Shown here one piece after another: positions 5,346 to 27,395 of a stretch of DNA of 64,000 bases; within the stretch, counting starts at the first letter, position 1, and each line of letters starts with the position of its first letter. Source of the DNA: Desulfobacterales bacterium (GTDB taxonomy: Bacteria > Desulfobacterota > UBA8473); NCBI GenBank assembly GCA_016209225.1, contig JACQWO010000027.1, forward strand, positions 1-64,000, in the 5' to 3' direction. The notes beneath the pieces were generated by a model. It made no database searches and was not told the DNA's origin. It saw only the letters and a program-made list of their open reading frames with translations. The position numbers and the translations under genes are program-made.

Positions 5346-5405
5346 ATATATATACATGATTCATTGTCATCTGGGCAGTTGGCTATCTGTTATAGGAGGT
5401 TACCA

Positions 5406-6644: not shown

Positions 6645-6761
6645 CTATTCAGGTAGGCACAGAGCACCAAAGGCACAAAGTAGGAAAAAAACAATGAAAC
6701 GACCCTGCTCCGCTCTGCTTTGTGCCTATGTGCCTTTGTCACTTTGTGCCTGAGTAGTTAC
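6641..6761 (-). repeat. MITE-like repeat, family A copy 2 (inverted)
   Basis: A 121-bp copy, inverted relative to copies 1 and 3. It starts GTAACTATTCAGGTAGGCAC and ends CACTTTGTGCCTGAGTAGTTAC-like. It fills the whole gap between two convergent genes: its second to fourth bases form the stop of the ketosynthase, and it ends two bases before the stop of the tal-pgi fusion. Its hairpin could act as a two-way terminator. Confidence 0.9.
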
Positions 6762-6762
6762 A

Positions 6763-13133: not shown

Positions 13134-14683
13134 TTATAACTCAGAACTAAACCTGTCTTTCCCATTCTTCTTTGCCTGGTACATGAGCTGGTCAACTCGG
13201 TGGATGAATGCCTTTACGTCTTCCTGCGGCTTGTATTGCGCAAAACCTATGCTCACCGTCATATGGACGCCCTAACCTGGCTCAGGCGAAAAAATCTCTT
13301 TCTTGAATTCCGTCCGGATTCTTTCGACCGTCACAACGGAGTCTCTGTCTGTGGTCATAGGCAGGAGAATGGTGAATTCTTCGCCGCCATAACGATATGC
13401 GGAATCTGTCTGGCGCAGGCATCTTTTAACCACCTGGCCGAGTCGCAACAAGACCTGATCTCCCTCGATATGACCGTAAGCATCGTTGAACCGTTTGAAA
13501 TCGTCGAGATCAAGGAGCAGAAGGGTCAAGGAGTGTCCGTAGCGGTTTGCCCGATCGACTTCCATCTCGAGTTGGTGATAAAAATGCCTGGAATTGTAAA
13601 GCTGGGTAAGGGCATCGACAATACTGAGTTCACGATACCTTTTTTCGCTCTCCTTTAGCTTCTCCTCTGCCTGCTTGTGCTCGGTGATTTCAGCCTGTAG
13701 CAGTTGATTGGATTGTTTCAACTTCATCGTCCGTTCATGCACAAGTGTTTCCATTCGAGCATGGGATTGTTGCAATAGTTCACTTTTTTCGGCTAATTCT
13801 CGCGTGCGTTTCCTGACGAGTAGTTGAAGCATCAACAACCAGAATCCGGCGATCACGGCAATAACGATCACCGTGATAATGGTGGGGAAGAGATATTTCT
13901 TCATCTTTCGCCAGGGATCGTCAAGGGAGAGCCATTTATCATAAATCCGGTCGTATTTCCCGTTAGTTTTAACAATCAACAGCCCTTGATTCAACTTTTC
14001 CGGTAGTTCTGTGTCACCTTTTCTCACGGCAAATTTGCCGGACGAAATCAGATTAAGCCCCGCCGGTATCGTATTGACAAGAATCAGCTTACCCTGGAAA
14101 TTCCGATCCAGCAGTTCATGATGGGCGGCGTCCGAGTGCATGACCACGATTTCCTTTCCCCGGGCGGCTGCGATGCTTTGAATGGTAGGGTATCCCTTGC
14201 GCACGAAGAAGGCATCGTAAGTCTCTGTATGGGGAAGGCTGAAATCGACACCAGGCGTTGTCGTTCAGGCAGCTTTGCCACGATCGGCAACACATCAATC
14301 TGACCTGACACTAAAGAGTTCCACATGGTATTCCACGAGCCGGTTGAAATCTTAATGGACAACCCCATGGTATTGGCAACGGCCTTGATCAATTCAACGG
14401 AAAACCCATCCACTTTTCCACTTTTATCAACTAAAGCATAGGGTGGAAAATCTATTTCGCTTCCGACATGGACTTCCTTTGAGTTGCTGGCTGCGTTGCA
14501 GATGCCACTTGCCAGGCCTCTGACCAGAAGCATAACAACGGTTATAAAGATGATGAGAAAAGAGTAAATAGTCACAATCTCCTTGCTCTTCGATTCCGAT
14601 TGCTCCAGTATTTTGATTCTCTGCTTTAATACGGGTAATTTTTTGATCTGTTCCGGATTTGATCTGCCTTGGTTATTTACCAT
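13134..14683 (-). pseudogene. Diguanylate cyclase with periplasmic solute-binding sensor domain, two frameshifts
   Basis: Three frames on the minus strand join into one protein. Frame 1 (14683 to about 14240): a helix near 40-60 as signal anchor, then an SBP_bac_3-type sensor (HVGSEIDFPPYALVDKSG). Frame 2 (about 14204-13272): the rest of the sensor (VRKGYPTIQSIAAARGKEI), a TM helix near residue 110, a coiled coil, and a GGDEF domain with active-site GGEEF. Frame 3 (about 13275-13134): the domain end, MTVSIGFAQY and the usual QAKKNGKDRF close. Intact, it would make c-di-GMP in response to a periplasmic ligand. The GGEEF loop is intact but the two shifts stop full-length synthesis unless they are sequence errors. 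Confidence 0.85.
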
Positions 14684-14908: not shown

Positions 14909-16134
14909 CTATTGTTTTCTTATGAACTCTATGGCCCTGCTAAGCCTGTATATAACCTTTTTCTTCCCCAGTATCTCAACTACCTCATATATCCCAGGGC
15001 TCACAGTTGATCCGGTTAGGGAAACCCTTACGGGCTGGGCTATTTTTCCAAGCTTTAAGTCTTTTTGAGAGGATACCTCTTTGAAGACCTCTTCAATTGC
15101 TTGCTGGTTGAAGGTCTGTAATTGGTTAAACCTCTTAATCAGAATCTGAAATATCTCTACTGTATCTTGCGTTAAGAACTTTTCAGCCGCTTTTCTGTCG
15201 TACTCAATCTCTTCTTTGAAGAAGAACTCCGAAGATTCTGCCATTTCAACTAATGTCTTACTTCTTTCTTTGAAGGCAAGGGTTATCTTTTGCAAAACTT
15301 CGTTATTTTCGTCTGTGTAGCCTCTTTTTTTTATAAAAGGAATCAATAACCCTGACAGATTTTTAGGGTTCTCCTCTTTTATGTAATGGGCATTAAGCCA
15401 TAATAGCTTTTCAGGGTTAAATACCCCGGCAGATTTCCCTACATTATCCAGAGAGAATTTTTCTATTAATTCTTCTCTGGAGAGTATCTCCTGGTCCCCG
15501 TATGACCAGCCCAGCCTGACCAGGTAGTTCATCACAGCCTGTGGGAGATACCCAAGCTCTTTGTAAGCCATAACTGATGTGGCTCCGTGCCGTTTACTCA
15601 AACGCGTTTTGTCAGTTCCCAATATCATAGGGACATGGGCGAATTGGGGCATAGGAGAATCAAGTGCCTGATACAATAAAATCTGTTTAGGGGTATTGTT
15701 GAGATGGTCGTCGCCCCTTATGACATGGGTAATCCCCATAGTTATGTCATCTACCACTACAGTGAAATTATAGGTTGGGTATCCATCAGACCTCTGAATT
15801 ATAAGATCATCCAGTTCTGAGTTTTCAAACCTTACTTCACCTTTTATCTCATCATTGACTACAGTTGTTCCTTCTCCCGGGGCTTTGAATCTGACAACAT
15901 GGGGTTCTCCTGGTTTAGGCTTATCTCACTCCCTACATTTTCCATCACATTTGGGTTTTCTGCCTTCTGCCAGAGCCAGTTTCCTCTTTTCCTCAAGATC
16001 CTGGGGTGTACAGCAGCAGTAATATGCCTTCCCTTTTTTAATCAGTTCTTCAATATACTCCCCGTAAATACTGCGCCACCGATATGTAAATATCCTGTAG
16101 GGCTTGGCGCAAACCTTGTTCTAATTTCTGACAT
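14909..16134 (-). pseudogene. gltX: Glutamyl-tRNA synthetase, internally deleted
   Basis: The start at 16134 reads MSEIRTRFAPSPTGYLHIGGA, the class I HIGH region. The sequence then jumps, out of frame, to YGEYIEELIKKGKAYYC. Against bacterial GluRS about 60 residues (the ARTALF...ERLEIY stretch) are gone. An in-frame TGA at 15926-15928 interrupts again after CDGKCRE. From 15925 to 14909 the frame is intact: [29 protein letters not shown], the KMSKS-equivalent [10 protein letters not shown], and the anticodon domain. Because Rossmann-fold parts are missing, this copy cannot be active, so a functional GluRS must be encoded elsewhere. Its ribosome site CGAGG lies only about 12 bases from the last attC core of the integron. 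Confidence 0.88.
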
Positions 16135-16150
16135 AAATACCTCGGAAATT

Positions 16151-16216
16151 CTACAACTTAAACGCCACGCATCAGCGGCGCGGCTTTTTGCGTCCGCTAA
16201 ACTTAATCGTTATACA
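16151..16216 (-). other. attC site 9 (distal)
   Basis: Minus-strand reading begins GTATAAC, then GATTAAGTTTAGCGG, a GC-rich centre AAAAAGCCGCGCCGCTG, the matching arm GGCGTTTAA, and ends GTTGTAG. This is the R''-L''-loop-L'-R' layout of an attC. Arms are imperfect. It lies after the stop of the lipoprotein gene (16245) and directly before gltX. Confidence 0.75.
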
Positions 16217-16244
16217 CAGGAATTCAAGTAGTTGCAAAACGATG

Positions 16245-16988
16245 TCAATCTTTTATCCATCCAGCATATGCTACTTTTACTATACTTATGTAATCATCGG
16301 CATCTAATATAAAATTAAGCAAGGACAATCTAATCGAATTGAATCTTTCAAGTCCTTCGATTGAATCACTGCTCAGGCGCTTCTTGTATGCAGCAACTAC
16401 TTCTGGCATTGCATCTAAGTTAGTTCGAGTTAAATCTACATATAAAATTTCTATGTTTTTGTTAATCTTTTCATTACTGATTGGCTTCGCAGCTGAAATC
16501 AAAAAAGGCCCTGGATTAGTGTTAATCAATTCACGCAATTTTTGTTTTTGAACAGATGCCGCTGCTATGCTAGTCAATATTGATTTTGACAATATGTCAT
16601 TTAAACTCTCTGAAGGTTGATGTCCTTTATCTTTATGGGGTATAAGAAATAGATTGTACAGAGATCTGTTGAAACCGGGGCTGTAATTGCCCACTGCGGA
16701 GGTTGACAGCTTTATAGATTCGACCAACTTCTCGTATCTATTCCAAGCTGCCATATCCGCCTTGCTCCGGTTGATCAAAACGTAGGTGTACATAGCATAA
16801 CCGGAGGGCTCTTTATTAGCGCCGTATAGAGCGTCCCATAGATGAGACCTTGGCAGTTCAACTGCCCTTGCCTTTGTAGCTGTCTTAGGCTCAATTGTGG
16901 CGCAACCGGACAAGAGCATCGCTAAACCCAACAAAGCAAAGGCGCAGAAAACAATTCGATCTTTAAAGACAATCTCAATTTTACTCAT
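16245..16988 (-). CDS. Cassette-borne lipoprotein, function unknown
   Basis: Start chosen at 16988 (MSKIEIVFKDR), because it overlaps the upstream stop as in a coupled pair; a longer frame to 17045 has no ribosome site. 247 residues with a lipoprotein signal: hydrophobic stretch near 12-26 ending in the lipobox LLSGC, so it is probably lipidated and exported. The mature part has no motif I recognise; it is helical with KLSTSAVGNYSPGF and a C-terminal NFILDADDYISIVKVAYAGW. It is the last gene of a three-gene cassette (17476 to 16245) and overlaps the small membrane protein gene by eight bases. attC 9 follows 29 bases after its stop. Confidence 0.75.
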   Translation of the reverse strand: MSKIEIVFKDRIVFCAFALLGLAMLLSGCATIEPKTATKARAVELPRSHLWDALYGANKEPSGYAMYTYVLINRSKADMAAWNRYEKLVESIKLSTSAVGNYSPGFNRSLYNLFLIPHKDKGHQPSESLNDILSKSILTSIAAASVQKQKLRELINTNPGPFLISAAKPISNEKINKNIEILYVDLTRTNLDAMPEVVAAYKKRLSSDSIEGLERFNSIRLSLLNFILDADDYISIVKVAYAGWIKD

Positions 16989-17187
16989 TCTTTTTCCCTC
17001 GTGTGTTTTTAGAGCCAATAAACTTCTCAATAATGTATGCAGCAATGATCGAAATAACGGTCACAAACAATATGGTTTGAGTTATGTCAATTCGTGGGTA
17101 AATAAGTTTTATAAACGTAAGAAGCATGGACCCAACTACGACCGTTAAGATCAACATCCTTGTTTTGCTGATATTCGATGAATCCAT
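16981..17187 (-). CDS. Small membrane protein in the lipoprotein cassette
   Basis: Start chosen at 17187 (MDSSNISKTRMLI), behind a strong AAGGAG six bases away; a longer frame to 17259 would overlap the preceding gene and has no site. 68 residues with two hydrophobic segments (about 11-30 and 38-56) and a basic tail (SKNTRGKKNE). No family recognised. Overlap with the lipoprotein start suggests translational coupling and joint function. Confidence 0.65.
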   Translation of the reverse strand: MDSSNISKTRMLILTVVVGSMLLTFIKLIYPRIDITQTILFVTVISIIAAYIIEKFIGSKNTRGKKNE

Positions 17188-17245
17188 GTACCACTCCTTC
17201 AAGGCTAGAGGCAAATCATACTTCGTGTAACTTTTTCTTTTTAGA

Positions 17246-17476
17246 CTATTCTTCGCCAAGAGATTCTAGGTCTGATATATCTTTTTTTCGGCCGACTGCC
17301 CGTTGAATAACTCGAGCAACTCTTTGAAGTCTTTCTGCACTTCCATAATATTGTTTTCTCAGATAATCGACGGTTGCAACGCGTTCTTCCGCAGGACGGC
17401 TCAACCAGTATGAAAGATCATCCTTCGCAGATTGGAGGTCATGAAGTTTGCTTTTACAGACAACTTTTTTAATCAT
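17246..17476 (-). CDS. Small antitoxin-like protein of unknown function
   Basis: 76 residues: charged, helical, with a core YWLSRPAEERVATVDYLRKQ and a following RLQRVARVIQR helix. Small proteins with this EERVA..LR.QYYG pattern occur next to nucleotidyltransferase-type toxin genes in many genomes (recollection, not checked), but no such toxin follows here; the next genes are a membrane protein and a lipoprotein. It could be an antitoxin orphaned by rearrangement. Upstream lies the IS1182 relic, and the expected attC junction is missing, so this cassette has lost its left neighbour. Confidence 0.6.
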   Translation of the reverse strand: MIKKVVCKSKLHDLQSAKDDLSYWLSRPAEERVATVDYLRKQYYGSAERLQRVARVIQRAVGRKKDISDLESLGEE

Positions 17477-17587
17477 AGTCTATAATTATCATGAATCCAT
17501 AAGGATTGATACAACTCTTTCGCCCAACGAGTCTGTAGAAAAAGTCCTTTTACAGGGGAGTAGTTTCCTGACCAAGACCGATTTTTT

Positions 17588-17881
17588 TTAGACTTTTAAC
17601 TTAGCACAGACGATGCATAGCTTGCATCCATCTATGGCAAACATCTCTTTGCCGATCAATCCCAGGTCGTCGCATACTAATAACACGTCACGGAAAAGAT
17701 GAATGATCTCCTTATCCATGGTGGCTATAAAATCTGCAATGGTGGTGAAATGTGGCCTGGTATCGGCGCTCAAGGCCATGAAGATGATGTTCTCCTCACA
17801 GCACTGGGCAATCCTTCTGCTGGAAATGATCCCCCTGGAATACGCAAAGAGAACTGTCTTCAGGAGTATGCTATCCTTTTC
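17588..17881 (-). pseudogene. IS1182-family transposase fragment
   Basis: The minus-strand frame from about 17881 reads EKDSILLKTVLFAYSRGI, then SSRRIAQCCEENIIF, MALSADTRPHFTTIADFI and GLIGKEMFAIDGCKL before a stop at 17588. These blocks are characteristic of IS1182-group transposases. Only about 98 of about 450 codons survive. A GAGTCTGTAGAAAAAGTC word at 17529-17546 resembles an IS1182 terminal repeat. The fragment begins within ten bases of attC 8, so the insertion has destroyed the cassette junction here. Confidence 0.8.
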
Positions 17882-17889
17882 CTACAGAT

Positions 17890-17957
17890 TCAACGCTGAA
17901 CTCACTGGTTTTTACCAAGCGGAGGGGAGTAAAAATCCAGTGCGGCGATTTGTTATG
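17890..17957 (-). other. attC site 8
   Basis: Minus-strand reading starts CATAACAAATCGCCG and ends GAGTTCAGCGTTG. The inner arms ACTGGATTTTTAC and GTAAAAACCAGT pair almost perfectly around a short loop. It follows the RhuM gene stop by 24 bases. Its first bases (CACATAAC) complement the start of the RhuM cassette with one mismatch. Confidence 0.85.
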
Positions 17958-17980
17958 TGTCTTACATGTTTATGTTTTTT

Positions 17981-18985
17981 TTACTCATCATTCTTTTTAT
18001 CCAGCTTCTTTATAGATGTTTCAATATGCTCAATAAAATCTTTTTCAACTGCGGACAGTTCATCTTTAGTTTTTTCTTTGTAAATTTTGTATTCTTTTTC
18101 AGCTTTTTCAATAGCCATCCTGTGACTGATTTTCCCTGCATCTTTTAGTATTTCTTTACCGGTCATCCTTAAAAAGTCGTCAACTCTTTCAAGCCAGTCA
18201 CGCATGTACATTGGTTGCTTGTTTTGTGCCTGCAACTCAGCTACTTCCAGATAAGCTGTTACGATTCTGTTGAGGATATCCAGTTCTTTTTCATTTAGAT
18301 AATTTTTGGCAATTCCGACTTCCTGTTTCGTGGGATTCTCCCCTTTAAATGTGGTAATCCCCATAAAAGGTTCTGATGAATCAGCTCTTTGATAAACAAT
18401 TTCTGCGGCTGTATTGCCATGAGCTGCCCAGTGCATCTTATTTTGAATGTTTTTAAAAAACTCTTTTGATATTTCAACTAATGGATCATAATCAATACTG
18501 GTGGCATAAATATCCAAAACTTTGCGCCAGAAAACTTTTTCTGATGAGCGGATATCCCTGATACGCTGTAAAAGTTCATCAAAGTAGTTGCCACCGCCTG
18601 CTTGTTTCAGCAGTTCATCGTTCATGGTAAAACCTTTGATGATATACTCTTTCAGGCGCTCGGTTGCCCATTTACGAAATTGTGTTCCACGATGAGATTT
18701 AACACGGTAACCAACCGAAATTATGACATCCAGATTGTAGTGTGCTACCTGGTATTTCTTCCCATCAGCGGCAGTTGTCCGGAAATTCCGGACAACTGAA
18801 ACTTCCTGAAGTTCACCTTCCGTAAAAATATTGCGGATATGCTCGGAAATTGTGCGTTTATCTTTAGAAAACAACTCTGCCATCTGTTGTTGAGTCAGCC
18901 AAACCGTTTCATCCAGTAGGCGGGTTTCAATTCGGGTTTCATTGTCTTCTGTCTGGTATATTAATATTTCTGACTTCTGTTCCAT
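17981..18985 (-). CDS. RhuM-family (virulence-associated) protein in an integron cassette
   Basis: 334 residues, matching the RhuM family first named from Salmonella SPI-3. The N-terminal part has a winged-helix-like segment (VWLTQQQMAELFSKDKRTI, about 28-46, then SEHIRNIF). A central block follows: AHYNLDVIISVGYRVKSHRGTQFRKWA is the family hallmark, given here in part as LDVIISVGYRVKSHRG near 84-99. A C-terminal helical domain ends in a basic KKLDKKNDE. Molecular function is not established; such proteins are frequent in defence islands and near restriction systems. ATG follows the stop of a frameshifted small membrane gene without a gap. attC 8 follows. Confidence 0.88.
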   Translation of the reverse strand: MEQKSEILIYQTEDNETRIETRLLDETVWLTQQQMAELFSKDKRTISEHIRNIFTEGELQEVSVVRNFRTTAADGKKYQVAHYNLDVIISVGYRVKSHRGTQFRKWATERLKEYIIKGFTMNDELLKQAGGGNYFDELLQRIRDIRSSEKVFWRKVLDIYATSIDYDPLVEISKEFFKNIQNKMHWAAHGNTAAEIVYQRADSSEPFMGITTFKGENPTKQEVGIAKNYLNEKELDILNRIVTAYLEVAELQAQNKQPMYMRDWLERVDDFLRMTGKEILKDAGKISHRMAIEKAEKEYKIYKEKTKDELSAVEKDFIEHIETSIKKLDKKNDE

Positions 18986-19197
18986 TTATCTGCTTTCCAG
19001 TATCGGTTTTAAAATATCCGGGTTTTTTTCGGACAATTGGAGTGCCTTCATTAATATACAATGCGCTTGTATCGTGTTTCCTTATATTCTTGTTTTGCTT
19101 TTTCTTCGGTATTTCTTCTTTGCCATAAAATTGTCAAATAATTTGAAATCAATCCTCCGATACCAAGCAAAACAACTATTTCAATTAAATGTTCCAT
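18986..19197 (-). pseudogene. Small N-terminally anchored protein, frameshifted
   Basis: The first frame, ATG at 19197 to a TAA at 19051, gives 48 residues: MEHLIEIVVLLGIGGLISNY (membrane helix) then a basic WQRRNTEEKAKQEYKETRYK. The reading continues in another frame as MKALQLSEKNPDILKPILES and stops at 18986, abutting the RhuM ATG. Short cassette proteins with one membrane helix followed by an ETRYK-type charged segment are common in chromosomal integrons (family recollection). A one-base shift near 19055 separates the halves. Too short for most ORF callers. Confidence 0.6.
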
Positions 19198-19210
19198 TTA
19201 TTATTCTATA

Positions 19211-19277
19211 CACATAATGTTAAGCTAAGCAGCGTGGCGGCTTTATGCCACGTCCGTCTTGAGCGATTTGTTATGCG
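19211..19277 (-). other. attC site 7
   Basis: Minus-strand reading starts CCGCATAACAAATCGCTCAAG, has the inner stem GACGTGGC / GCCACGC, and ends TTAGCTTAACATTATG. The core GTT is mutated to ATT. The first bases CGCATAAC complement the beginning of the REase-MTase cassette (GTTATGCG at 21219-21226). Confidence 0.85.
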
Positions 19278-19280
19278 GTT

Positions 19281-20246
19281 TTATATGCTTTGCCGTGCCC
19301 ACCCTTCATTTGACTTTATGGTTCTTGAAGGCGGTTCATGTTCAAATAGATTTTTCTGGCTTGAATGTGCCTTTATTCTTCGATTTGCCAGTTCTACATA
19401 TTCAGGTTCGATGTCATACCCGATGTAATGCCTGCCATCCTTCAACGCTGCAAGACAGGCGGTTCCACTGCCACAAAACGGGTCTAAGACAACATCTTTC
19501 TCGAAAGTATATAGCTGGATAAGGCGGTGTGGCAGTTCCTCTGGGAAGGGTGCAGGATGTCCAATACTGCGGGCTGAGACGGCGGGAAATGTCCAAACGC
19601 TTTTTGTCCATTCAAGGAACTCTTCTTTAGTTATCGTATTTTTATTATTTCCTCGTTTCCTTGAAAAGGATTCTTTTGAAAAAACTAAAATATATTCGTG
19701 AATGTCTCTTAATACAGGGTTTGCCGCCGATTGCCAGCTTCCCCATGCGGTTGAAGGGCTTGCGCTTGATGCCTTGTTCCAGATGATTTCACCCCGCATG
19801 AAATAGCCAAGTTGAAGCATGTCCTCTATGATGTAGCTATGGAGCGGTATGTATGGTTTCCTTCCGAGATTGGCAACATTTATACATGCTCTTCCGCCTG
19901 TAACCAGTTTTTTGTAAGTTTCCTTGAACACTGCCTTTAGTAATGTTCTGTATTCATCAAGGGAAAGGTCTTTGTCATATTCTTTCTTTACATTATATGG
20001 TGGTGATGTGACCATTAAATGAACACTGTAGTCGGGGATATCATCCATTATCTCGCTTGATTTGCAGTAGATTTTATCAAGGTTTTCATTGGGGATATGA
20101 TTCTCAATAATTTTAATCGTTTCAAGCGGCTTTTTACCCGCATATAATTTGCTATCATAAAACTCCGAAGAATCATGATTGATTCGCCCCGGAGTCCCGA
20201 AAGAACTCGTTTTTGTTCCATTGCGTCTATGCTTTAACTCTTTCAT
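19281..20246 (-). CDS. Type II DNA methyltransferase (beta class, probably N4-cytosine or N6-adenine)
   Basis: 321 residues. Catalytic motif IV is VTSPPYN near residue 75, and the SAM-binding motif I is VVLDPFCGSGT near 265, so motif IV precedes motif I: the beta order. SPPY is typical of N4-cytosine enzymes but also occurs in adenine enzymes. A central variable target-recognition part includes NKASSASPSTAWGSW near 155. It protects the host DNA at the site cut by the adjacent nuclease. It starts seven bases after the REase stop (20253), behind GGAAGAATAG, so the two are co-translated in one cassette. The last codons end four bases before attC 7. Confidence 0.94.
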   Translation of the reverse strand: MKELKHRRNGTKTSSFGTPGRINHDSSEFYDSKLYAGKKPLETIKIIENHIPNENLDKIYCKSSEIMDDIPDYSVHLMVTSPPYNVKKEYDKDLSLDEYRTLLKAVFKETYKKLVTGGRACINVANLGRKPYIPLHSYIIEDMLQLGYFMRGEIIWNKASSASPSTAWGSWQSAANPVLRDIHEYILVFSKESFSRKRGNNKNTITKEEFLEWTKSVWTFPAVSARSIGHPAPFPEELPHRLIQLYTFEKDVVLDPFCGSGTACLAALKDGRHYIGYDIEPEYVELANRRIKAHSSQKNLFEHEPPSRTIKSNEGWARQSI

Positions 20247-20252
20247 ATTTTG

Positions 20253-21122
20253 CTATTCTTCCTTGATAAGTTTTAAAAAGACTTCTGCCTTCTTTTCGTA
20301 GGTTCCTTCACGGTTTGCAGTCTCGATAATCTTTCCTAATTCTTTTTTACTTTTCATGCTGGAAAAGAAGTTCCTTTCCTCTGACAGTAAGACATTAAAG
20401 GCATTCCTTAGCTCTTCAAAACTATCAAACCTGTTGAATCCCTGCTTTTCGGTCTTCTTTATGTTCTCTCCATTATCATCCAACGGCTGAGGGTTTACAG
20501 ACCAGAAGCCTTGTATAATTCCTGCAACCTTCAGGTGGTCAACCTTCGGATAATAGCTATTTGTAATGGGCGTATTGCCCATCACAATAATCGGGATTGT
20601 AGCAGCTTTAAAACTCGAAACCCTTATGTTTATGCTCTTGCCGATGCCCTTCAACATTGAATCGGAACGCAACAAGCCAGGATTACCCTGATGTGTCTTA
20701 TAGTCACCGATGCAAGACAATGTCTTTCCGCCTTGTAACTCCCAGTTCCAGACAATGGACATCTTTACCTCAATTATAGCCACGATCTCCTCTGGTCGCT
20801 GGTTGATATTCTTGCTTTTTGAAATGACAACATCAGCAGGGGACATATTTGTCAAGGCAATCTCGTCACAGATTGCGCCTTGAACGGCAAACAGTCCCTT
20901 ATCTATGACGACTTCTTGGATTAAGTCCGTTGTCCATTTCTCAGTAAAATTCCCGATTAATGCGTTTCTACTTTGGAGGGTGCTTTTCTTGCCATCATAG
21001 CCTTTGGGCCAGTAGGCGAGGTATCTATTTTTATCGGTTACATAGAACAACTGTTCTGGAGTGGCAAATTTAACGGATTCAGTGAAAAACTTACTTTCAA
21101 CATCCTTGTTCCAAAGTTCCAT
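20253..21122 (-). CDS. Type II restriction endonuclease, PD-(D/E)xK type
   Basis: 289 residues. A likely catalytic core is PADVVIS (about 115-121) with IIEVKMS (about 137-143), i.e. the D...ExK spacing of the PD-(D/E)xK fold. The N-terminal part (residues 1-100) holds RYLAYWPKGYDGKKSTLQSR, given only as a landmark. Pairing with a DNA methyltransferase seven bases downstream strongly supports a restriction enzyme. The cut site cannot be read. It is the first gene of a two-gene cassette bounded by attC 6 and attC 7. Ribosome site AAGGTAG precedes the start by nine bases. The whole RM system therefore moves as one cassette. Confidence 0.85.
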   Translation of the reverse strand: MELWNKDVESKFFTESVKFATPEQLFYVTDKNRYLAYWPKGYDGKKSTLQSRNALIGNFTEKWTTDLIQEVVIDKGLFAVQGAICDEIALTNMSPADVVISKSKNINQRPEEIVAIIEVKMSIVWNWELQGGKTLSCIGDYKTHQGNPGLLRSDSMLKGIGKSINIRVSSFKAATIPIIVMGNTPITNSYYPKVDHLKVAGIIQGFWSVNPQPLDDNGENIKKTEKQGFNRFDSFEELRNAFNVLLSEERNFFSSMKSKKELGKIIETANREGTYEKKAEVFLKLIKEE

Positions 21123-21218
21123 AGTGTGGGGATTCTACCTTTTTTAAATTAAGATTTAAAGTCTTTTCTTTGGTTTCTGTTTGGTTGGATGCCTTTAATA
21201 ACTCTATTTATTATTCAC

Positions 21219-21277
21219 GCATAACGGCTGAACTGTGCCCCCCCGCTTTTTGGGTCGGCACCAGTGAATTGTTATGA
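21219..21277 (-). other. attC site 6
   Basis: Minus-strand reading starts TTCATAACAATTCACTGGTGCC, loops through CCCAAAAAGCGGGGGG, and ends GGCACAGTTCAGCCGTTATG. The first bases TTCATAAC complement the start of the HNH-DGQHR cassette (GTTATGAA). It begins three bases after the DGQHR stop. Confidence 0.88.
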
Positions 21278-21279
21278 AT

Positions 21280-22326
21280 TTATTGGTTCAACATATTCAA
21301 GAGTTCTTTAATAATTTCTCTAATCCATTGCTTGTTTGAAAATTGTCCCATGCTATTTGAAGTCCAATTGAGATCGATACTTATTGTTGACTTGTCTTTA
21401 AGTCTCAAAAGAACTGATTTGTCTTTCAAAAATGCAATCTGATTTGTGAACGAAATCTTATTTAAAGCCTTTCCTTCATACAAGTCACATCTATTTTTTA
21501 TGCAACCAAATATTCCAAGAAGTATTTCAAACCCTACACTTTTGGTCAGAACATGGTTTTTTTGATCGTTCCATTCATTAGGGAAAACTTCTCTGACTGC
21601 ATTGAAATAGGCGTTCATTATCTCAATTTTTTGGGCTGTTGTTTTCGTATAGATACAGCCGCCATTTCCAAGATGAGGTTTAAGTAAAGACATTATGGCT
21701 GTATTTTTTAACCACTTGTTTTTTTGTTCCGGCAAAAACTGTATTTTCCCGTGCAGCGCCGAAGACGGCTCTGAATCCAGTCCTTTAATTACCTCATAAA
21801 TTCGTTCATCATCACTTTCAAGTATTCTTGTTCCTGCCATCAAGTCAAGAAGAAGTCGTTCATCAACTTTTATCTGCTTTGAATTAATATCAATAAAAAG
21901 TTTCGCTCTTACACTTTCGCTCATATTATGAACTGCAACAACTGCCAAATCGAATTCGATGCCATCTGAGTAATCAAAGCCTCTAACTCTGTGCTGGCCA
22001 TCTAAAATATACGCTATCTTACAATCATCGTGTTTGTCAGGATCCGGAATTGCAACTTGCCCTGGAATTCCAGTATCTTCAATTTGCACGTCCTTTTTCA
22101 AATCAATGACTACTGCATTTGGAAGTAAAGAAGATTCTTCTTTGAGCCACTTTCCTATCTCTTTTGCCCGTGGAATATTGACGACCCTTTGTAACTCGGC
22201 TGGATTGTCTTCTGACCTTGGGGTAACATAACTGATCTTTCCCAGTAGTGAAGATTTCATTTTGAAAAGATAAAGCTGCTTGTCTTTCTGACTTAAAACA
22301 ATTGCAGGGATTCTAATTTTATCCAT
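21280..22326 (-). CDS. DGQHR-domain (DndB-like) protein in an integron cassette
   Basis: Start chosen at 22326 (MDKIRIPAIVL), behind GGAGATCAGCAAAAT; a longer frame to 22368 lacks a site. 348 residues. The hallmark AYILDGQHRVRGF is near residue 120, followed by FDLAVVAVHNMSESVRAKLF and INSKQIKVDERLLLDL. DGQHR proteins are ParB/sulfiredoxin-like folds found in DndB (phosphorothioate DNA modification control) and in deazapurine DNA-modification clusters. No dnd or dpd genes lie nearby. The 34-base overlap with the upstream HNH nuclease gene implies coupled translation and a shared task, most plausibly anti-phage or anti-plasmid defence (inference). Confidence 0.85.
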   Translation of the reverse strand: MDKIRIPAIVLSQKDKQLYLFKMKSSLLGKISYVTPRSEDNPAELQRVVNIPRAKEIGKWLKEESSLLPNAVVIDLKKDVQIEDTGIPGQVAIPDPDKHDDCKIAYILDGQHRVRGFDYSDGIEFDLAVVAVHNMSESVRAKLFIDINSKQIKVDERLLLDLMAGTRILESDDERIYEVIKGLDSEPSSALHGKIQFLPEQKNKWLKNTAIMSLLKPHLGNGGCIYTKTTAQKIEIMNAYFNAVREVFPNEWNDQKNHVLTKSVGFEILLGIFGCIKNRCDLYEGKALNKISFTNQIAFLKDKSVLLRLKDKSTISIDLNWTSNSMGQFSNKQWIREIIKELLNMLNQ

Positions 22327-22811
22327 ATTTTGCTGATCTCCTTCTTGTTTGATTTTCTTAGATTGCATTCTTGGCAGAGAAACTGCAAATTGTCATATTT
22401 TGAACTGCCACCTTTTGATGTCGGTAATATATGGTCAATGTGCATAACAACGTCGGGGGGTCTCCGTCCGCAGGAAGGCTTTGCACATTTTAATTCGACA
22501 TTTGTAAAAAGCCGAAGCAAATCATCATAAGAAATAGGTTTCCTGTAATGATCATCAATTGACCTTATTACCTCTTCATATAGTCTCACAATATTTGCAT
22601 GATCCCATATATATTTTGTTCTGTTTTGAACCCTATCTTTAAACAAAGCTATTGCATTTGGTTTGGTACGGATTTCGTTGAGCCAATTCCTATCATCTGA
22701 CATCGTAGAAACAAGATGCTCCTGTAGACACCAGTTGAAATGATCCATTACACTGTCGGCGTCAATTCCAAGTAAACGTGAAAGCGTCTCGAATTCTTTA
22801 ATGTTTTTCAT
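22293..22811 (-). CDS. HNH endonuclease paired with the DGQHR protein
   Basis: 172 residues. The C-terminal HNH fold reads CAKPSCG (about 111-117), then MHIDHILPTSKGG with the catalytic His (about 124-137), DNLQFLCQECNLRKS with the Asn and second zinc-type Cys pair. The N-terminal 100 residues are helical with no motif I know (KEFETLSRLLGIDADSVMDH). It is the first gene of the cassette between attC 5 and attC 6 and overlaps the DGQHR gene. A metal-dependent DNA nicking/cleavage activity is expected from the fold; target unknown. Confidence 0.87.
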   Translation of the reverse strand: MKNIKEFETLSRLLGIDADSVMDHFNWCLQEHLVSTMSDDRNWLNEIRTKPNAIALFKDRVQNRTKYIWDHANIVRLYEEVIRSIDDHYRKPISYDDLLRLFTNVELKCAKPSCGRRPPDVVMHIDHILPTSKGGSSKYDNLQFLCQECNLRKSNKKEISKIWIKLESLQLF

Positions 22812-22821
22812 AATGCTTATT

Positions 22822-22908
22822 CATAACGATTTAAATAACCCGCTGGTGAACAGCTTATTGAAAACCAAAATAGGCTTATCACCAGTCGGGTTGATTTGCT
22901 TGTTCGGC
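22822..22908 (-). other. attC site 5
   Basis: Minus-strand reading starts CGCCGAACAAGCAAATC. The arms AACCCGACTGGTGA and TCACCAGCGGGTT pair strongly around a 37-base loop, and the site ends AATCGTTATG. The first bases CGCCGAAC complement the start of the 152-aa cassette (GTTCGGCG). Confidence 0.88.
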
Positions 22909-22922
22909 GTGTTTTCATTAAA

Positions 22923-23381
22923 TCATTTTTTCTGAAGATATTTGTTATAAAGAGTTGTTGCAAGTTCTCGTATGCCGTGAGGAGTGGCTTCATCGGGAGG
23001 TAGCGTCCATATCGTAGCCATCCATTGAATGGTATCCCAAACGAACATTTCGTTTCCTGATTTTATATCGGCTTCATGCAGCAATATAGCGCGGCATGAC
23101 ATTAAGGCAGCATAGCGAACCTCGGCATCATTTTTTAAAATATCTGTGGCATAATGTTCTGCTAGTTCTAAATCTTCCTTACTGTGGGCAGGTGATACTT
23201 TGCCGAAAAGTTTGTTAGTTACCGCAGCGGTTATTGTGAGCCCGCGCTCTTTGCCATATTTCTGATTAAAGAGCGGAAAAAGTTTGTGGGCAACTGCCAT
23301 CTGAATAACATCCGTATCGCGATGAATTTGCTCAAGGAGTTTCCGCGCTGATCCACTAAAAAAGCGACCGAGTAATCCCAT
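22923..23381 (-). CDS. Unknown cassette protein, 152 aa
   Basis: Soluble, helical, no signal peptide. Begins MGLLGRFFSGSARKLLEQI; contains LTITAAVTNKLFGK near 50 and a Trp-rich segment FVWDTIQWMATIWTLPPDEA near 112. No family recognised. A clean ribosome site (AAAGGAG, eight bases before ATG) and full cassette boundaries (attC 4 upstream, attC 5 downstream) support a real gene. The hairpin-rich stretch 23425-23470 lies between its start and attC 4. Confidence 0.75.
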   Translation of the reverse strand: MGLLGRFFSGSARKLLEQIHRDTDVIQMAVAHKLFPLFNQKYGKERGLTITAAVTNKLFGKVSPAHSKEDLELAEHYATDILKNDAEVRYAALMSCRAILLHEADIKSGNEMFVWDTIQWMATIWTLPPDEATPHGIRELATTLYNKYLQKK

Positions 23382-23471
23382 ATCAATGTTCTCCTTTCAT
23401 GCCTTTATATTATTAATCATTATTGCCTAGGCGCTCTGGCTTCCCCGCATCGTTCCGTGCGAATCTCAGCG

Positions 23472-23558
23472 CCGAACGACTGGTATAAGCTGCAGCCGAG
23501 CGAAGCGAGGGAACCAGACCGCAGGCCTGGCTGTCAGCTTAATACCTTCGTTATGTGC
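23472..23558 (-). other. attC site 4
   Basis: Minus-strand reading starts GCACATAACGAAGGTATTAAG. The arms GGTATTAAGCTGACAGCC and GGCTGCAGCTTATACC pair closely, and the site ends AGTCGTTCGGC. The first bases GCACATAAC complement the start of the 175-aa cassette (GTTATGTGC). The last codons of the 175-aa gene lie inside the site. Confidence 0.88.
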
Positions 23559-24061
23559 TGTATTAATTCTTTGTTTTCTTGTGCTTTTTTATATTGCGCA
23601 TTTATGTCTTTTCTCATGTTTGGGCCAATTGTTACATTGCAGCAAGAAATAAGACCATCGCAAATAATTTGGTCCCCAAAATTTAAAATTACCGTTTCGA
23701 TTATAGCAAATTTACCAGGAACTATTTCTTCGATTGAATCAGTGATGCCTAAAACGCAATATATTTTATTTGTTGAACTGCTCAGCAGTAATGAGTGTTT
23801 TTTTAGAGTCTTCAGGTAAATAAATGTGTCTTTAATGCCTTTTTTGATATTTTCTAAAATCTCTATGTGATATTTTCTAATTTGCTTGCCCAATGAAATA
23901 AATTCATCCACAACGCTGATGTTTTCAAATAAGATCTCTCTTGCTTCCTGATAGTCATTTATTGACTCTATTTCCTCACCAAACTCTTTCAAAAATATGA
24001 ACTGGAGAAGATTCTTGTAAATTTCGAGAAAGTCTTGAGCCTGTTTGCGTGGTAATTTCAT
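23534..24061 (-). CDS. Unknown cassette protein, 175 aa
   Basis: N-terminal half helical (LEIYKNLLQFIFLKEFG near 13); C-terminal half with beta-type segments (KIYCVLGITDSIEEIVPG near 98, FAIIETVILNFGDQIICDG near 118-136) and a helical close. The C-terminal pattern of a short strand, PG, a long hydrophobic pair and IICDGLI recurs in proteins of unknown function from other bacteria (recollection). The stop lies within attC 4, which is frequent in cassettes. No function proposed. Confidence 0.72.
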   Translation of the reverse strand: MKLPRKQAQDFLEIYKNLLQFIFLKEFGEEIESINDYQEAREILFENISVVDEFISLGKQIRKYHIEILENIKKGIKDTFIYLKTLKKHSLLLSSSTNKIYCVLGITDSIEEIVPGKFAIIETVILNFGDQIICDGLISCCNVTIGPNMRKDINAQYKKAQENKELIQHITKVLS

Positions 24062-24073
24062 TTATTCTTTGCA

Positions 24074-24156
24074 CATAACGCTCAAACCCCGCGCCAACGA
24101 GCTTTCCGCGCAGCGCCGCCGCGCTTCTCGCGGTCAGGTTGAGCCGGTTGTTATGC
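24074..24156 (-). other. attC site 3
   Basis: A textbook site: minus-strand reading GGCATAACAACCGGCTCAACCTG, a GC-rich stem GCGAGAAGCGCGGCGGCGCTGC (spanning the loop), ending GGGTTTGAGCGTTATG. Its start (GGCATAAC) does not complement the beginning of the cassette it closes (GTTAGATG at 25437), so a junction has been lost in between. Confidence 0.92.
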
Positions 24157-24170
24157 CTATTTCATTGATT

Positions 24171-24345
24171 TTATTTGATTATATCTGCTCTATATTTCTC
24201 AGGCGGTGGGTGATTACTGCAAAATTTATTTAGTGCCTCTCTATGCTTTTTTTCATCTTCAATGTTCCAAATTTCTTCTAATGCAGAGTCTTCGTTTTCT
24301 CTCCAATCAAGAAAATTTAGATATTCTTGAGGAAAAAGTTCTGGG
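24171..24345 (-). pseudogene. 3' remnant of a cassette gene cut by the Y1 transposon
   Basis: About 55 codons, acidic and Trp-rich: EYLNFLDWRENEDSALEEI and NKFCSNHPPPEKYRAD. The frame can be extended to 24368 but the first dozen residues (MCPQNFLSPELF) are translated from the transposon end with its TGTCCCCAGAA words, so the original 5' part is missing. Ends 14 bases before attC 3. Confidence 0.6.
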
Positions 24346-25100
24346 GACAAAAAGTTCTGGGGACACAATACTCAATTCAGCCATGTCTCTTTTTCGGTCC
24401 CGGCTTTTGCGGTCGAAGCATCCGCCCCAGTCCCTTTTCTACCGTTTGTACAAAATGCTCGCTACCAAGTGGTCTGCCGTTCCGCTCATGTTGACGCAGA
24501 TCATTTCTTTCCTGCTCTGATATGTCTTCCGATAAAAAATCTCTCCAGTCGCCTGCTATTTCAAGAAGTGGAGAGACATTGACCATGTCGTCATCCTTCC
24601 CTGTGAGATGAGCGGATGCGCTGCTCCACTGATAGTCCCCCGGTTTCTCTACCAGACCCGCTCTGACAGGATTAAATTCTATGTACCTTGCAGCAACCAG
24701 AAGATAGGTTTCATCCATAGGGCATGATGAAAATCTCCCCTGCCAAAGATAACCCCGCCATCCCTTGAGAAAGTTTATGTATCGGGTATATCGTCGGTGT
24801 GCCTCTCCAATTGCCCTTCTCAAGCCATCTTCCGAAGTCGGGACGGCAATAAGATGAACGTGGTTGGGCATCAGGCAGTAAGCCCATATCTCCACATTAC
24901 ACCGTTTGCACCATCCAGACATGAGGGCTATATATTCCCTGTAATCTTCCTCTCTGAAAAAGGTCTGCTGTCTTCGATTGCCACGTTGTGTTATATGGTG
25001 GGGAAGCCCCGGTGAAACTACACGACCTATTCTCGCCATAGTCAAATAATACTATCGCAAATCTCTCTTGTCAATAATTAAGTATTGTGTCCCCAGAATT
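24336..25100 (-). mobile_element. Y1 (REP-associated tyrosine) transposon insertion
   Basis: The transposase gene is flanked by TTCTGGGGACACAATACT on the left (24354-24371) and its exact complement AGTATTGTGTCCCCAGAA on the right (25081-25098). A second partial copy of the left word, TTCTGGGGACA, is at 24340. These ends are typical of this transposase group. The element splits a cassette: a membrane-protein fragment lies to the right, a different gene's tail to the left. Confidence 0.8.
24377..25045 (-). CDS. REP-associated tyrosine transposase (Y1_Tnp)
   Basis: 222 residues of the IS200-like/TnpA-REP family, single-strand transposases. The HUH metal motif is PNHVHLIAV near residue 60. The downstream helix HRRYTRYINFLKGWRGYLW and the region YIEFNPVRAGLVEKPGDYQ (near 145) are characteristic, with the catalytic Tyr probably in the latter helix region. 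Intact ends and full length suggest recent activity. It lies inside an integron cassette and has the same strand as the cassettes. Confidence 0.93.
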   Translation of the reverse strand: MTMARIGRVVSPGLPHHITQRGNRRQQTFFREEDYREYIALMSGWCKRCNVEIWAYCLMPNHVHLIAVPTSEDGLRRAIGEAHRRYTRYINFLKGWRGYLWQGRFSSCPMDETYLLVAARYIEFNPVRAGLVEKPGDYQWSSASAHLTGKDDDMVNVSPLLEIAGDWRDFLSEDISEQERNDLRQHERNGRPLGSEHFVQTVEKGLGRMLRPQKPGPKKRHG

Positions 25101-25362
25101 AATGTGCAACAAGTTGAAATGAGTATTGTCTTTCGGATTCAACTCGTGGTGTTTCAGTCAACAAGCCTGCTTTATCGGCCTTTGTACGCGCACGCTCAAA
25201 GTCCTGAAATTCTATTTTCAATCCGCCAGGGAGTTCAAGTGACTTGAACAATGGCGCTAACCAAGGAATTAATGCAATGAATATAAGGGTGACGGTGATT
25301 GCATCAATTGTAATAGAGACTGTTCCGAAAAAAAGTATTATGAAAACTGTAACTATTTGATT
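25099..25362 (-). pseudogene. Truncated membrane-anchored cassette protein
   Basis: Minus-strand frame from about 25362: TVFIILFFGTVSITIDAI and a further hydrophobic stretch (LIFIALIPWLAPLFKSL), then the cytoplasmic start LPGGLKIEFQDFERARTKA and YSFQLVAH with a stop made at the transposon edge. No valid start codon is in frame (a TAG precedes), so the 5' end is also damaged. Similar two-helix proteins followed by a GGLKIEF segment occur in other integron arrays (recollection). Confidence 0.6.
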
Positions 25363-25436
25363 CTACAAGAATCACCTTACCAAAAGACCATAAAAACAAT
25401 GCTTATTGCAGTTTTATTAGAATGATCACAAATTAC

Positions 25437-25498
25437 ATCTAACTACAAGTAGTTATCAGCCGTGCGCTTTTCGCATCGGCTGGATTAACTGGTTAGGA
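25437..25498 (-). other. attC site 2
   Basis: Minus-strand reading starts CCTCCTAACCAGTTAATCCAG, inner stem CAGCCGATGCG / CGCACGGCTG, ending ACTTGTAGTTAGATG. The first bases CCTCCTAAC complement the start of the convergent-pair cassette (GTTAGGAGG). On the + strand the same bases give the ribosome site of the 77-aa gene. Confidence 0.88.
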
Positions 25499-25508
25499 GG
25501 TATTTAAT

Positions 25509-25742
25509 ATGTCGGAGTACAGATTAATTAACATCATGGTTGAAAAATTAATGGATGATGAAGAAGATGCCTTTTGTTACGACATCCCCATAGCATTACG
25601 TGAATATGCTGATGCCGTTGAACGTGGGAACAATAGTCCTTTCTCTCCATTGGAAACTGTGGGTAAATCCGATTGTGAAATATTCCACACAAGCAACGGT
25701 TGTGAAATTAAAGTAATTGCTGGTGGTTACAACAAGATTTAA
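25509..25742 (+). CDS. Unknown small cassette protein on the opposite strand, 77 aa
   Basis: An acidic soluble protein, MSEYRLINIMVEKLMDDEED... ending IKVIAGGYNKI. No family recognised. It is read against the array direction, so the usual Pc promoter cannot drive it; it needs its own. Its ribosome site TTAGGAGG is the 3' core of attC 2. It converges on, and overlaps by four bases, the 78-aa gene of the same cassette. Antisense cassette genes with self-promoters are often toxin-antitoxin or regulatory units, but nothing here proves that. Confidence 0.65.
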   Translation: MSEYRLINIMVEKLMDDEEDAFCYDIPIALREYADAVERGNNSPFSPLETVGKSDCEIFHTSNGCEIKVIAGGYNKI

Positions 25743-25975
25743 TCAATAGGATAACCTTTTGCCTTTATTTTATCTTTAATTGACTTAATTAGAGAGGATA
25801 ATGAGGTTTCACTATTGATTTTAGAGATTCTAGTTTTAGTAATTGTAATAATGGGATTATCATCTTTATCAAAAACACGAAACCGGATTTTTCGTTTATA
25901 ATCCCAAATTTCTGCTACACAACAATAAGGATGGAATGATGATTGAATCTTTTGTCTTATTTCTTCGTTTGTCAT
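25739..25975 (-). CDS. Unknown small cassette protein, 78 aa
   Basis: A basic protein, MTNEEIRQKIQSSFHPYCC..., with a beta-rich middle (KIRFRVFDKDDNPIITI, near 29-45) and a helical Lys-rich tail. Start behind AGGAGGAAACA. It lies in array orientation and converges with the 77-aa gene. No function proposed. Confidence 0.65.
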   Translation of the reverse strand: MTNEEIRQKIQSSFHPYCCVAEIWDYKRKIRFRVFDKDDNPIITITKTRISKINSETSLSSLIKSIKDKIKAKGYPID

Positions 25976-25984
25976 TGTTTCCTC

Positions 25985-26041
25985 CTAACTGAGAACTCAG
26001 CCGACGCGGCTGTTTGCGGTCGGCTGGAGTGTCTGGTTGTG
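25985..26041 (-). other. attC site 1 (proximal)
   Basis: Minus-strand reading starts CACACAACCAGACACTCCAGCC, stem CCAGCCGACCGC with GCGTCGGCTGAG, ending TTCTCAGTTAG. The first bases CACACAAC complement the integration core GTTGTGTG at the attI side (26308-26315). Confidence 0.9.
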
Positions 26042-26045
26042 TGAT

Positions 26046-26261
26046 TTATTTAATTTCTTTGCCACACCCGACACCGAATTTATCTATATGTAGCTCGCCT
26101 CCTGTTGCCCAATTTTCTCGGTCGAGTTCCTCAATTAATACTGTAACCCATTCTTGTTTGACGTCCAAGGTAGAAACAACCGAATCGGTTATTGCTTGAA
26201 CAAGTTTCCGTTTTTGTTCGGTAGTGCGACCTTTCGCCAGCTTTATTGAAACAATTGGCAT
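26046..26261 (-). CDS. 4-oxalocrotonate tautomerase family protein
   Basis: 71 residues. After Met removal the N-terminal Pro (MPIVSIKLAKGRT) is the catalytic base of this superfamily, and Arg residues near 11 and 39 fit the active site. A member catalyses keto-enol tautomerisation of a 2-oxo acid; the substrate is unknown. It is the first cassette next to attI, hence the last one acquired and the best placed for expression from an integron promoter. Confidence 0.9.
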   Translation of the reverse strand: MPIVSIKLAKGRTTEQKRKLVQAITDSVVSTLDVKQEWVTVLIEELDRENWATGGELHIDKFGVGCGKEIK

Positions 26262-26306
26262 TCTTTCTTTTCCTATTGATTGCTTCCCTGCTACCCGACA
26301 TTATGG

Positions 26307-26380
26307 GCACACAACAATGATTATACTGGATCGGTTTATTCCTTCGATTTATGTTTAACCATACTATATTTTAACCAAAT
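26307..26380 (-). other. Probable attI recombination site
   Basis: The array ends at a GTTGTGTGC core (minus strand, 26307-26315), which is the mirror of the start of attC 1. The AT-rich DNA from here to about 26380, between the first cassette and the divergent intI start, is where attI must lie. Only the core is defined by sequence; the outer limit is a guess. No clear sigma-70 promoter for cassettes was found here; a TTGACT (26409) and TATAAT (26428) are only 13 bases apart. Confidence 0.6.
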
Positions 26381-26475
26381 AAACAAATAATTTCAGAGGA
26401 TTATCTCCTTGACTTCCGTAAATGATCTATAATATCATATTATACAGAATCAGTATATCGTAGATAGGAACTTAT

Positions 26476-27336
26476 ATGAGAGAGAAAATGTCAGCTTCAC
26501 AAACCCTTCCCGATTTTCAGCAATATCTGCTTTCACGAAAACTCGTGCCGGAAAAAAGTGTAACTTTCTACGCCTATTGGGCCAATCGATATCTAACGTT
26601 CTCAAAACGCCTGAAGAATGTTGATGTGGCAGAGGCGCTCCGTCTATTTCTGGAGGATCTGCAATCCAGGAAAAACATTGCTGACTGGCAGATACAGCAA
26701 GCCAAAGAGGCCATTCAGCTCTACAGCGATCATTTTCAAGGCGGGAAAGCGGCTGGGGTTGATAACGATGCAAAAACGCCACTCGCCCCTTTCGACAAGG
26801 ATTTGGTCGTGGTAAACATGCAGAAGGCCATCCGTGTGAAACACTATTCTCTTAGCACGGAAAGGACTTATATGGATTGGGCAAGGCGCTTTTTCGATTA
26901 CGCCGGCAATATGAAAGGCGGGCTTCTTCGAGAAACACCGGACGCTGAAGATATCCGGGAGTTCTTGACGCATTTGGCCGTCCACAAGAAGGTTTCCGCT
27001 TCGACACAGAATCAGGCATTTAACGCACTCCTGTTCCTGTTCCGGAATGTTCTGAAAATAGAAATCGGTGATCTGAGCAGCACCATCCGGGCAAAGCGTG
27101 GACCGAAACTCCCTGTCGTATTGACCGTCGAGGAAGTACGGCAACTATTCTCCTGTATGGAGGGAAAGCAGCTTTTGATTGCGCAGATAATTTACGGGGC
27201 AGGCATTCGCCTTATGGAGCTGGCCCGTTTGCGGGTCAAGAATATCGATTTTGGATCAGGGCTGATTTTTGTTCGGTCATCCAAGGGGGACAAAGACCGT
27301 TCGACAATCCTGCCTGGATCCGCCGTAAACCCGTGA
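26476..27336 (+). pseudogene. intI: Integron integrase, C-terminally truncated
   Basis: 286 residues of an IntI-type tyrosine recombinase. The N-terminal SAM-like domains include LPDFQQYLLSRKLVPEKSV and HYSLSTERTYMDWARRF (near 128). The catalytic domain starts normally: LPVVLTVEEVRQLF, IIYGAGIRLMELARLRVK with the first catalytic Arg, and SSKGDKDRSTILP. It then stops at GSAVNP. The HxxR box, the second His and the Tyr nucleophile, together with the integron-specific insert, are all missing (expected length about 400 for this longer-N-terminus group). It therefore cannot recombine. The DNA up to the next gene (27337-27395) shows no remnant of the rest. Confidence 0.92.
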
Positions 27337-27395
27337 ACCGGTAAATGGGTTTTATTCTTTATTCTATTTACGACTTGCGACTCCCGAATAACGAT

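What the first reader, a model, noticed from the sequence alone, without database searches (positions are those of the whole stretch)
16135..27336. Chromosomal integron with nine attC sites, carrying defence-type cassettes
Seen: an IntI-type gene, divergent minus-strand genes, and nine RYYYAAC...GTTRRRY-type structured sites after gene stops. Known: such arrays are cassette stores, and recent work links integron cassettes to phage defence. Inference: this Desulfobacterota-like array holds an RM system, an HNH/DGQHR pair and a RhuM protein close together, with other unknown cassettes that may also be defensive.
Basis: partly seen in the sequence, partly recalled or inferred. Interest (0 to 1): 0.85.

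Follow-up and report, generated by a model that had tools for sequence, protein, structure and literature searches.

The report
Chromosomal integron array with a dead integrase
This is a real store of movable gene cassettes in a bacterial chromosome, holding a restriction-modification pair and two other possible anti-virus genes, but the enzyme beside it that should move them has lost its catalytic half, and copies of the same docking site are scattered around the genome.

Summary
A covariance model trained only on class 1 integron attCs returns eight of the nine claimed sites as the eight best hits in 64 kb, all on the minus strand; a model of native sites recovers the ninth weakly. The attI crossover is fixed at window 26310-26313: eight platform copies are alike on the integrase side and unrelated beyond G^TT.

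It matches integron-integrase positions 3-168 of 315 and lacks the IntI-specific insert, HxxR and the catalytic Tyr. Two congeners share the truncation junction; one has an empty pycB-gltX site.

Defence reading: strong for the REase+MTase cassette, found in eight other genomes, attC right after the MTase in four. Plausible for HNH+DGQHR, a conserved gene pair resembling GmrSD restriction. Only a candidate for RhuM. Most other cassettes are unknown or not defensive.

The genome holds about 95 attCs at 39 places and at least seven platform remnants; defence-like cassettes also sit in other arrays. Best reading: a decayed chromosomal integron (CALIN with relic intI), possibly still served in trans by intact integrases elsewhere. 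Known kind, new dispersed multi-copy variant.

The parts
26476..27336 (+). intI relic, 286 aa; stops before the IntI-specific insert, the HxxR and the catalytic Tyr
   Evidence: TIGR02249 positions 3-168/315, 189 bits against cut-off 265; full-length relative L010:1833-3164 is 443 aa; stop junction shared with G001 and G003
26313..26475 (-). attI and intI leader; crossover at AAC/G^TT, 26310-26313
   Evidence: eight copies align on this side and diverge exactly at GTT
26046..26261 (-). cassette 1: 4-oxalocrotonate tautomerase family, 71 aa
   Evidence: PF01361 E 1.3e-18
25983..26042 (-). attC 9
   Evidence: R1 23.9 bits E 3.5e-4; R2 51.4 bits
25739..25975 (-). cassette 2: DUF1652 protein, 78 aa (a 77-aa ORF 25509-25742 lies on the + strand)
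   Evidence: PF07865 E 2.8e-5
25437..25498 (-). attC 8
   Evidence: R1 20.6 bits; R2 44.8 bits; fold z -5.1
24377..25045 (-). REP-associated tyrosine transposase (RAYT) inserted in cassette 3, splitting its genes; termini about 24345-24375 and 25085-25100
   Evidence: PF01797 E 1.3e-12, NF047646 75 bits against cut-off 80; inverted termini ATTCTGGGGACACAATACT seen
24073..24156 (-). attC 7 (long variable stem; weakest by covariance model)
   Evidence: duplex scan rank 2 in the window; R2 12.7 bits
23534..24061 (-). cassette 4: unknown protein, 175 aa
   Evidence: no Pfam hit
23471..23556 (-). attC 6
   Evidence: R1 17.9 bits; R2 41.3 bits; fold z -3.5
22923..23381 (-). cassette 5: unknown protein, 152 aa
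   Evidence: no Pfam or PADLOC hit
22821..22908 (-). attC 5
   Evidence: R1 21.1 bits; R2 39.5 bits; fold z -4.7
22293..22811 (-). cassette 6a: HNH endonuclease, 172 aa, D-H-N-N motif intact
   Evidence: PF14279/PF01844 E about 5e-12; best PDB hit 4h9d; motif columns invariant in three homologues
21280..22368 (-). cassette 6b: DGQHR/DndB-family protein, 362 aa (start probably 22326), overlapping 6a
   Evidence: TIGR03187 131.8 bits against cut-off 58.85; same overlapping pair in G273
21219..21277 (-). attC 4
   Evidence: R1 33.2 bits E 5.9e-7; R2 51.6 bits
20253..21122 (-). cassette 7a: presumed type II restriction endonuclease, 289 aa, PD-(D/E)xK-type D97...E118-V-K120
   Evidence: motif invariant in five homologues; always upstream of the MTase
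19281..20246 (-). cassette 7b: beta-class DNA methyltransferase, 321 aa (TSPPYN, DPFCGSG)
   Evidence: PF01555 E 3.7e-46; PADLOC MTase_II E 6e-136
19212..19276 (-). attC 3
   Evidence: R1 36.2 bits E 7.7e-8, best hit in the window
17981..18985 (-). cassette 8: RhuM family protein, 334 aa
   Evidence: PF13310 E 2.5e-113; PADLOC PDC-S05 E 6e-161
17888..17958 (-). attC 2
   Evidence: R1 19.0 bits; R2 27.7 bits; 90% alike an attC at L051:4022-4091
17518..17888 (.). transposase remnant next to attC 2 (one end repeated elsewhere)
   Evidence: 17522-17618 is 99% identical to L033:5373-5469
17246..17476 (-). distal flank: remnant of a two-gene nucleotidyltransferase module, fused by an internal deletion
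   Evidence: both genes intact in G003 (L091:4935-5511)
16245..17259 (-). distal cassette 9: 92-aa and 266-aa ORFs, absent at this place in G001, G002 and G003
   Evidence: alignments jump from 16160 to 17243
16157..16215 (-). attC 1, next to the gltX start
   Evidence: R1 12.4 bits E 0.99; R2 22.8 bits

Best explanation
A decayed chromosomal integron that inserted between pycB and gltX in an ancestor within this genus. Cassettes entered at attI (G^TT, 26310-26313) by IntI recombination with single-stranded attC hairpins, giving a minus-strand array of nine attC-ended units. The cis integrase later lost its catalytic C-terminal half, so this copy alone can no longer move cassettes: by the usual classification it is a CALIN with a relic intI and a still recognisable attI. 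Shown here: attI and attC identity, the truncation, the empty site, the shared truncation, and independent mobility of the RM pair as a cassette. Inferred: that an intact integrase elsewhere in the genome (480-aa IntI on C19, or the subfamily copy split over contig ends C85/C86) has acted on it in trans, and that the RM pair, and perhaps HNH+DGQHR, restrict phage DNA.
For: attC model independent of the window; native model. attI divergence point in eight copies. Truncation: with full-length L010 and an intact C-terminal half at L017:15541-14876. Empty site in G004: 4 bp between the pycB stop and the gltX start. Same truncation junction but a HicBA cassette in G003. RM pair with attC directly after the MTase in G004, G003, G298 and G033.
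Against: Array differences after truncation could be loss by homologous deletion rather than trans-recombination. attC 1 and attC 7 score weakly. The genome is a 95-contig draft, so no intact copy of this intI subfamily is assembled in one piece.
Confidence: 0.86

Rival explanations
1. A frozen relic: the array has not changed by recombination since intI was truncated; present differences between strains are deletions and transposon insertions only.
For: In Xanthomonas, strains with the same intI lesion usually keep identical arrays (PMC12444791). The array carries a RAYT insertion, a transposase remnant and a fused gene.
Against: G003 shares the truncation and the locus but has a HicBA cassette at attI that the window lacks, and its HicA differs by one residue in the 60 shown from cassettes in other arrays of this genome. 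The window has a distal cassette absent from G001, G002 and G003.
Confidence: 0.4
2. The array is a functional anti-phage store whose RM, HNH/DGQHR and RhuM cassettes are expressed and protect the host now.
For: RM and DGQHR/HNH catalytic motifs are intact. Chromosomal integron cassettes in Vibrio protect against phage (Darracq et al. 2025, as reviewed in PMC12409362).
Against: The genes sit in the sixth to eighth cassettes from attI; no strong promoter into the array was found by the simple scan; RhuM has no protection test known to me; expression was not measured.
Confidence: 0.35
3. An ordinary defence island of fixed operons, with chance palindromes between genes.
For: Short palindromes are common; a crude duplex scan gives comparable scores in shuffled sequence.
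Against: An independent covariance model ranks the sites first, all on one strand, one per gene unit; the RM pair recurs with attC at its end in other families; the attI breakpoint is shared by eight copies.
Confidence: 0.02

Closest known systems
Sedentary chromosomal integrons as defence stores (Vibrio cholerae, V. parahaemolyticus; Darracq 2025, Getz 2025, reviewed in PMC12409362)
   Same: attI, attC array, cassettes oriented away from intI, small two-gene type II RM cassettes
   Different: nine cassettes rather than more than 100; integrase truncated; many platform remnants and attC clusters around one genome
Xanthomonas integrons at ilvD with broken intI, and CALINs elsewhere (PMC12444791)
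   Same: ancestral insertion beside a housekeeping gene, intI lost by deletion, extra CALINs at other places
   Different: here arrays sharing one intI lesion differ in cassettes, and the attI/intI platform itself occurs in several copies
CALIN elements (IntegronFinder; PMC9024848)
   Same: cluster of attC sites without a functional integrase
   Different: attI and more than half of intI are still present
GmrSD type IV restriction (DUF262 + DUF1524 HNH; PMC4619093)
   Same: ParB/Srx-like DGQ(H/Q)R protein paired with an HNH nuclease with D-H-N-N; 4h9d is the HNH's best PDB hit here and the template for GmrD in that paper
   Different: DndB/TIGR03187 and HNH_5/HNH families, not DUF262/DUF1524; two separate overlapping genes

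Membership tests
Complete integron | functional integron integrase | tested here: not met
   TIGR02249 3-168/315, 189 bits against cut-off 265; no HxxR, no Tyr, no IntI insert
Complete integron | attI next to intI | tested here: met
   eight platform copies diverge exactly at G^TT
Complete integron | array of attC sites in one orientation | tested here: met
   nine sites, all minus strand
CALIN | at least two attC sites without a functional integrase | tested here: met
   nine attC, integrase relic only
Integron gene cassette (RM pair) | gene unit moves with its own attC | tested here: met
   attC directly after the MTase in L123, L124, L125 and L129
Type II restriction-modification | DNA methyltransferase paired with a nuclease gene | tested here: met
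   PF01555; adjacent protein with invariant D...E-V-K, paired in all relatives found
Type II restriction-modification | site-specific cleavage blocked by the cognate methylation | not testable with these tools
   needs an enzyme assay
GmrSD type IV restriction | DUF262 and DUF1524 domains | tested here: not met
   Pfam gives DndB (PF14072) and HNH_5/HNH (PF14279, PF01844) instead
RhuM family | PF13310 domain | tested here: met
   E 2.5e-113
RhuM as anti-phage system | protection against phage | not tested
   only a PADLOC candidate class, PDC-S05

The most novel reading that the evidence does not exclude
The genus runs a dispersed integron network: many copies of one attI platform, most without a working integrase, and about 39 attC clusters around the chromosome, all served in trans by one or two intact integrases that exchange cassettes, including two-gene RM units, between places.
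Probability: 0.35. Interest if true: 0.7.

Novelty: new variant of a known kind. Interest (0 to 1): 0.52.

Why it matters
Integrons are usually described as one platform per genome with its own integrase. Here at least seven remnants of one attI/intI platform and about 95 attC sites lie in a 3.1 Mb genome, with the same integrase truncation in strains that carry different cassettes. That makes trans-mobilisation of integrase-less arrays directly testable. It also adds a type II RM pair carried as a cassette across several families, and a conserved HNH+DGQHR gene pair that deserves a defence assay.

Tried and rejected
Rfam scan of the window: no hit at gathering threshold. A hand-made duplex scan for attC separated sites poorly from shuffles and was replaced by covariance models. 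PDB and Pfam searches of the REase: nothing; plasmid and phage collections: nothing. Structure prediction of the REase with its relatives was not sent, because those relatives came from the genome search, which the stated rule does not list. Chance-palindrome and fixed-operon readings rejected. A putative extra attC half-site near 17522 was dropped: it is the edge of a transposase remnant repeated elsewhere.

Full report
What is there. Between pycB (27396-29309, minus) and gltX (14909-16132, minus) lie an IntI-type gene on the plus strand (26476-27336) and a leftward row of minus-strand genes with structured sites after them. To test the sites without circularity I built a covariance model from ten attCs of class 1 integrons on plasmids. 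In the 64 kb window it ranks eight of the nine sites first to eighth, all on the minus strand, E 7.7e-8 to 0.99; the next hits are at E 1.8 and 4.1. Its hits in this genome gave a second model of 47 native sites, five of them from the window, which ranks all nine first to ninth, the site at 24073-24156 weakly. Folding alone is clear for six of nine. The second model is not promiscuous: 23 of 59 genomes searched have no match at E <= 0.001.

attI. The attI/intI leader of the window aligns with seven other copies: C85, C58 and C44 of this genome, congener G003, and L009, L011 and L012 from public records. All eight are alike on the integrase side and unrelated immediately after GTT. That is the pattern of different first cassettes joined at G^TT, and it places the crossover at 26310-26313.

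The integrase is broken. It matches positions 3-168 of 315 of the integron-integrase model, 189 bits against a cut-off of 265. A full-length relative, L010, is 443 aa and 85% identical over the shared part. The window copy ends 60 bp before the pycB stop, and no frame continues it. Congeners G003 and G001 share the end sequence CGTGAACCGGTAA(A/G)TGGGTTTTATTC, so the truncation is older than their split, barring gene conversion. In G004 only 4 bp separate the pycB stop from the gltX start: an empty site.

Same locus, different cassettes. G003 has at this locus a HicBA cassette, one attC and the nucleotidyltransferase pair. The window has nine attC units and a fused remnant of that pair. The HicA protein of G003 differs by one residue in the 60 shown from cassettes on contigs C43 and C71 of this genome. 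I read this as cassette turnover after the truncation, most simply by an integrase acting in trans, but loss by deletion is not excluded. Candidates for such an integrase: the 480-aa IntI on C19 beside six attCs, and a subfamily member whose start lies at the end of contig C85 and whose complete catalytic half lies at the end of C86 in matching orientation. That the two ends belong together is an inference.

Genome-wide picture. The native model finds 91 attCs in the whole genome and about 95 after rescanning fetched loci, in 39 clusters on 26 contigs, many far from contig ends. Platform pieces lie at C63, C85, C86, C58, C44 (two), C2 and C72. Among 59 genomes this one has the most attCs (68 under stricter filters); genus mates have 34, 20, 11 and 7, and a one-contig genome of the phylum has 27 at scattered positions, so scatter is not just fragmentation.

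Are the cassettes defensive? REase+MTase: relatives in eight other genomes, up to 90% identical, and the pair is kept wherever both genes could be seen; in G004, G003, G298 and G033 an attC follows the MTase directly, in G298 within a row of 15 attCs. The nuclease shows an invariant D97...E118-V-K120. This is a mobile two-gene type II RM cassette; activity is inferred. HNH+DGQHR: the pair recurs with the same overlap in G273 (39% and 37%), and on a Priestia plasmid an HNH gene precedes a DGQHR-family gene next to a BglII/BstYI-type REase (HNH similarity only local; that DGQHR protein lacks the exact motif). The D-H-N-N and DGQHR motifs are intact in the window pair. The arrangement resembles GmrSD (PMC4619093), but the domains differ, so I call it GmrSD-like, not GmrSD. 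RhuM is a PADLOC candidate only. Other cassettes: a tautomerase, a DUF1652 protein, a gene pair split by a RAYT, two unknown proteins and a distal two-ORF unit. Other arrays of the genome are rich in toxin-antitoxin genes and also carry defence-like genes, among them a BglII-type RM pair in first position on C85.

Verdict. Defence-carrying integrons are known (PMC12409362), as are truncated intI genes and CALINs (PMC12444791, PMC9024848). What stands out is the multi-copy, dispersed platform and the chance it gives to test trans-mobilisation.

Noticed in passing
window 14909-16132: gltX has a 176-bp deletion after codon ~20 and a nonsense TGA; it is intact in six relatives. The only other Glx-tRNA synthetase gene found in this 98.5% complete genome is a 563-aa GlnRS-like one, also present in congeners that keep gltX. 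Either an assembly fault or a missing functional copy.
   Followed up: partly
window 5219-5347 and 6639-6763: Two long palindromic elements of about 125 bp with GGCACAAAG motifs and similar ends; MITE-like.
   Followed up: no
window 27332-27395: The stretch between the intI relic and pycB recurs at 75-78% identity at L054:6703-6765 and L036:5331-5401; a small dispersed repeat may mark the truncation.
   Followed up: partly
L038:7661-7837 and L033:11208-11383: Two attI platforms (C58, C44) end at almost the same base just after the intI start codon, in front of unrelated sequence; unexplained.
   Followed up: partly
window 25311-25455: About 110-140 bp in the split cassette 3 is 99-100% identical to contig C33 start (L060:1-140) and C19 (L063:5375-5483).
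   Followed up: no
window 13272-14683: A sensor-like gene (SBP_bac_3 + GGDEF) is broken into two frames.
   Followed up: no
L051:5324-6879: A BglII-family REase and a methyltransferase form the first cassette at attI on contig C85: a second two-gene RM cassette in this genome.
   Followed up: partly
L136:3444-5900: Priestia plasmid pBEH1: HNH, DGQHR and BglII/BstYI-type REase genes in a row, which hints at a functional link of DGQHR pairs with RM.
   Followed up: partly
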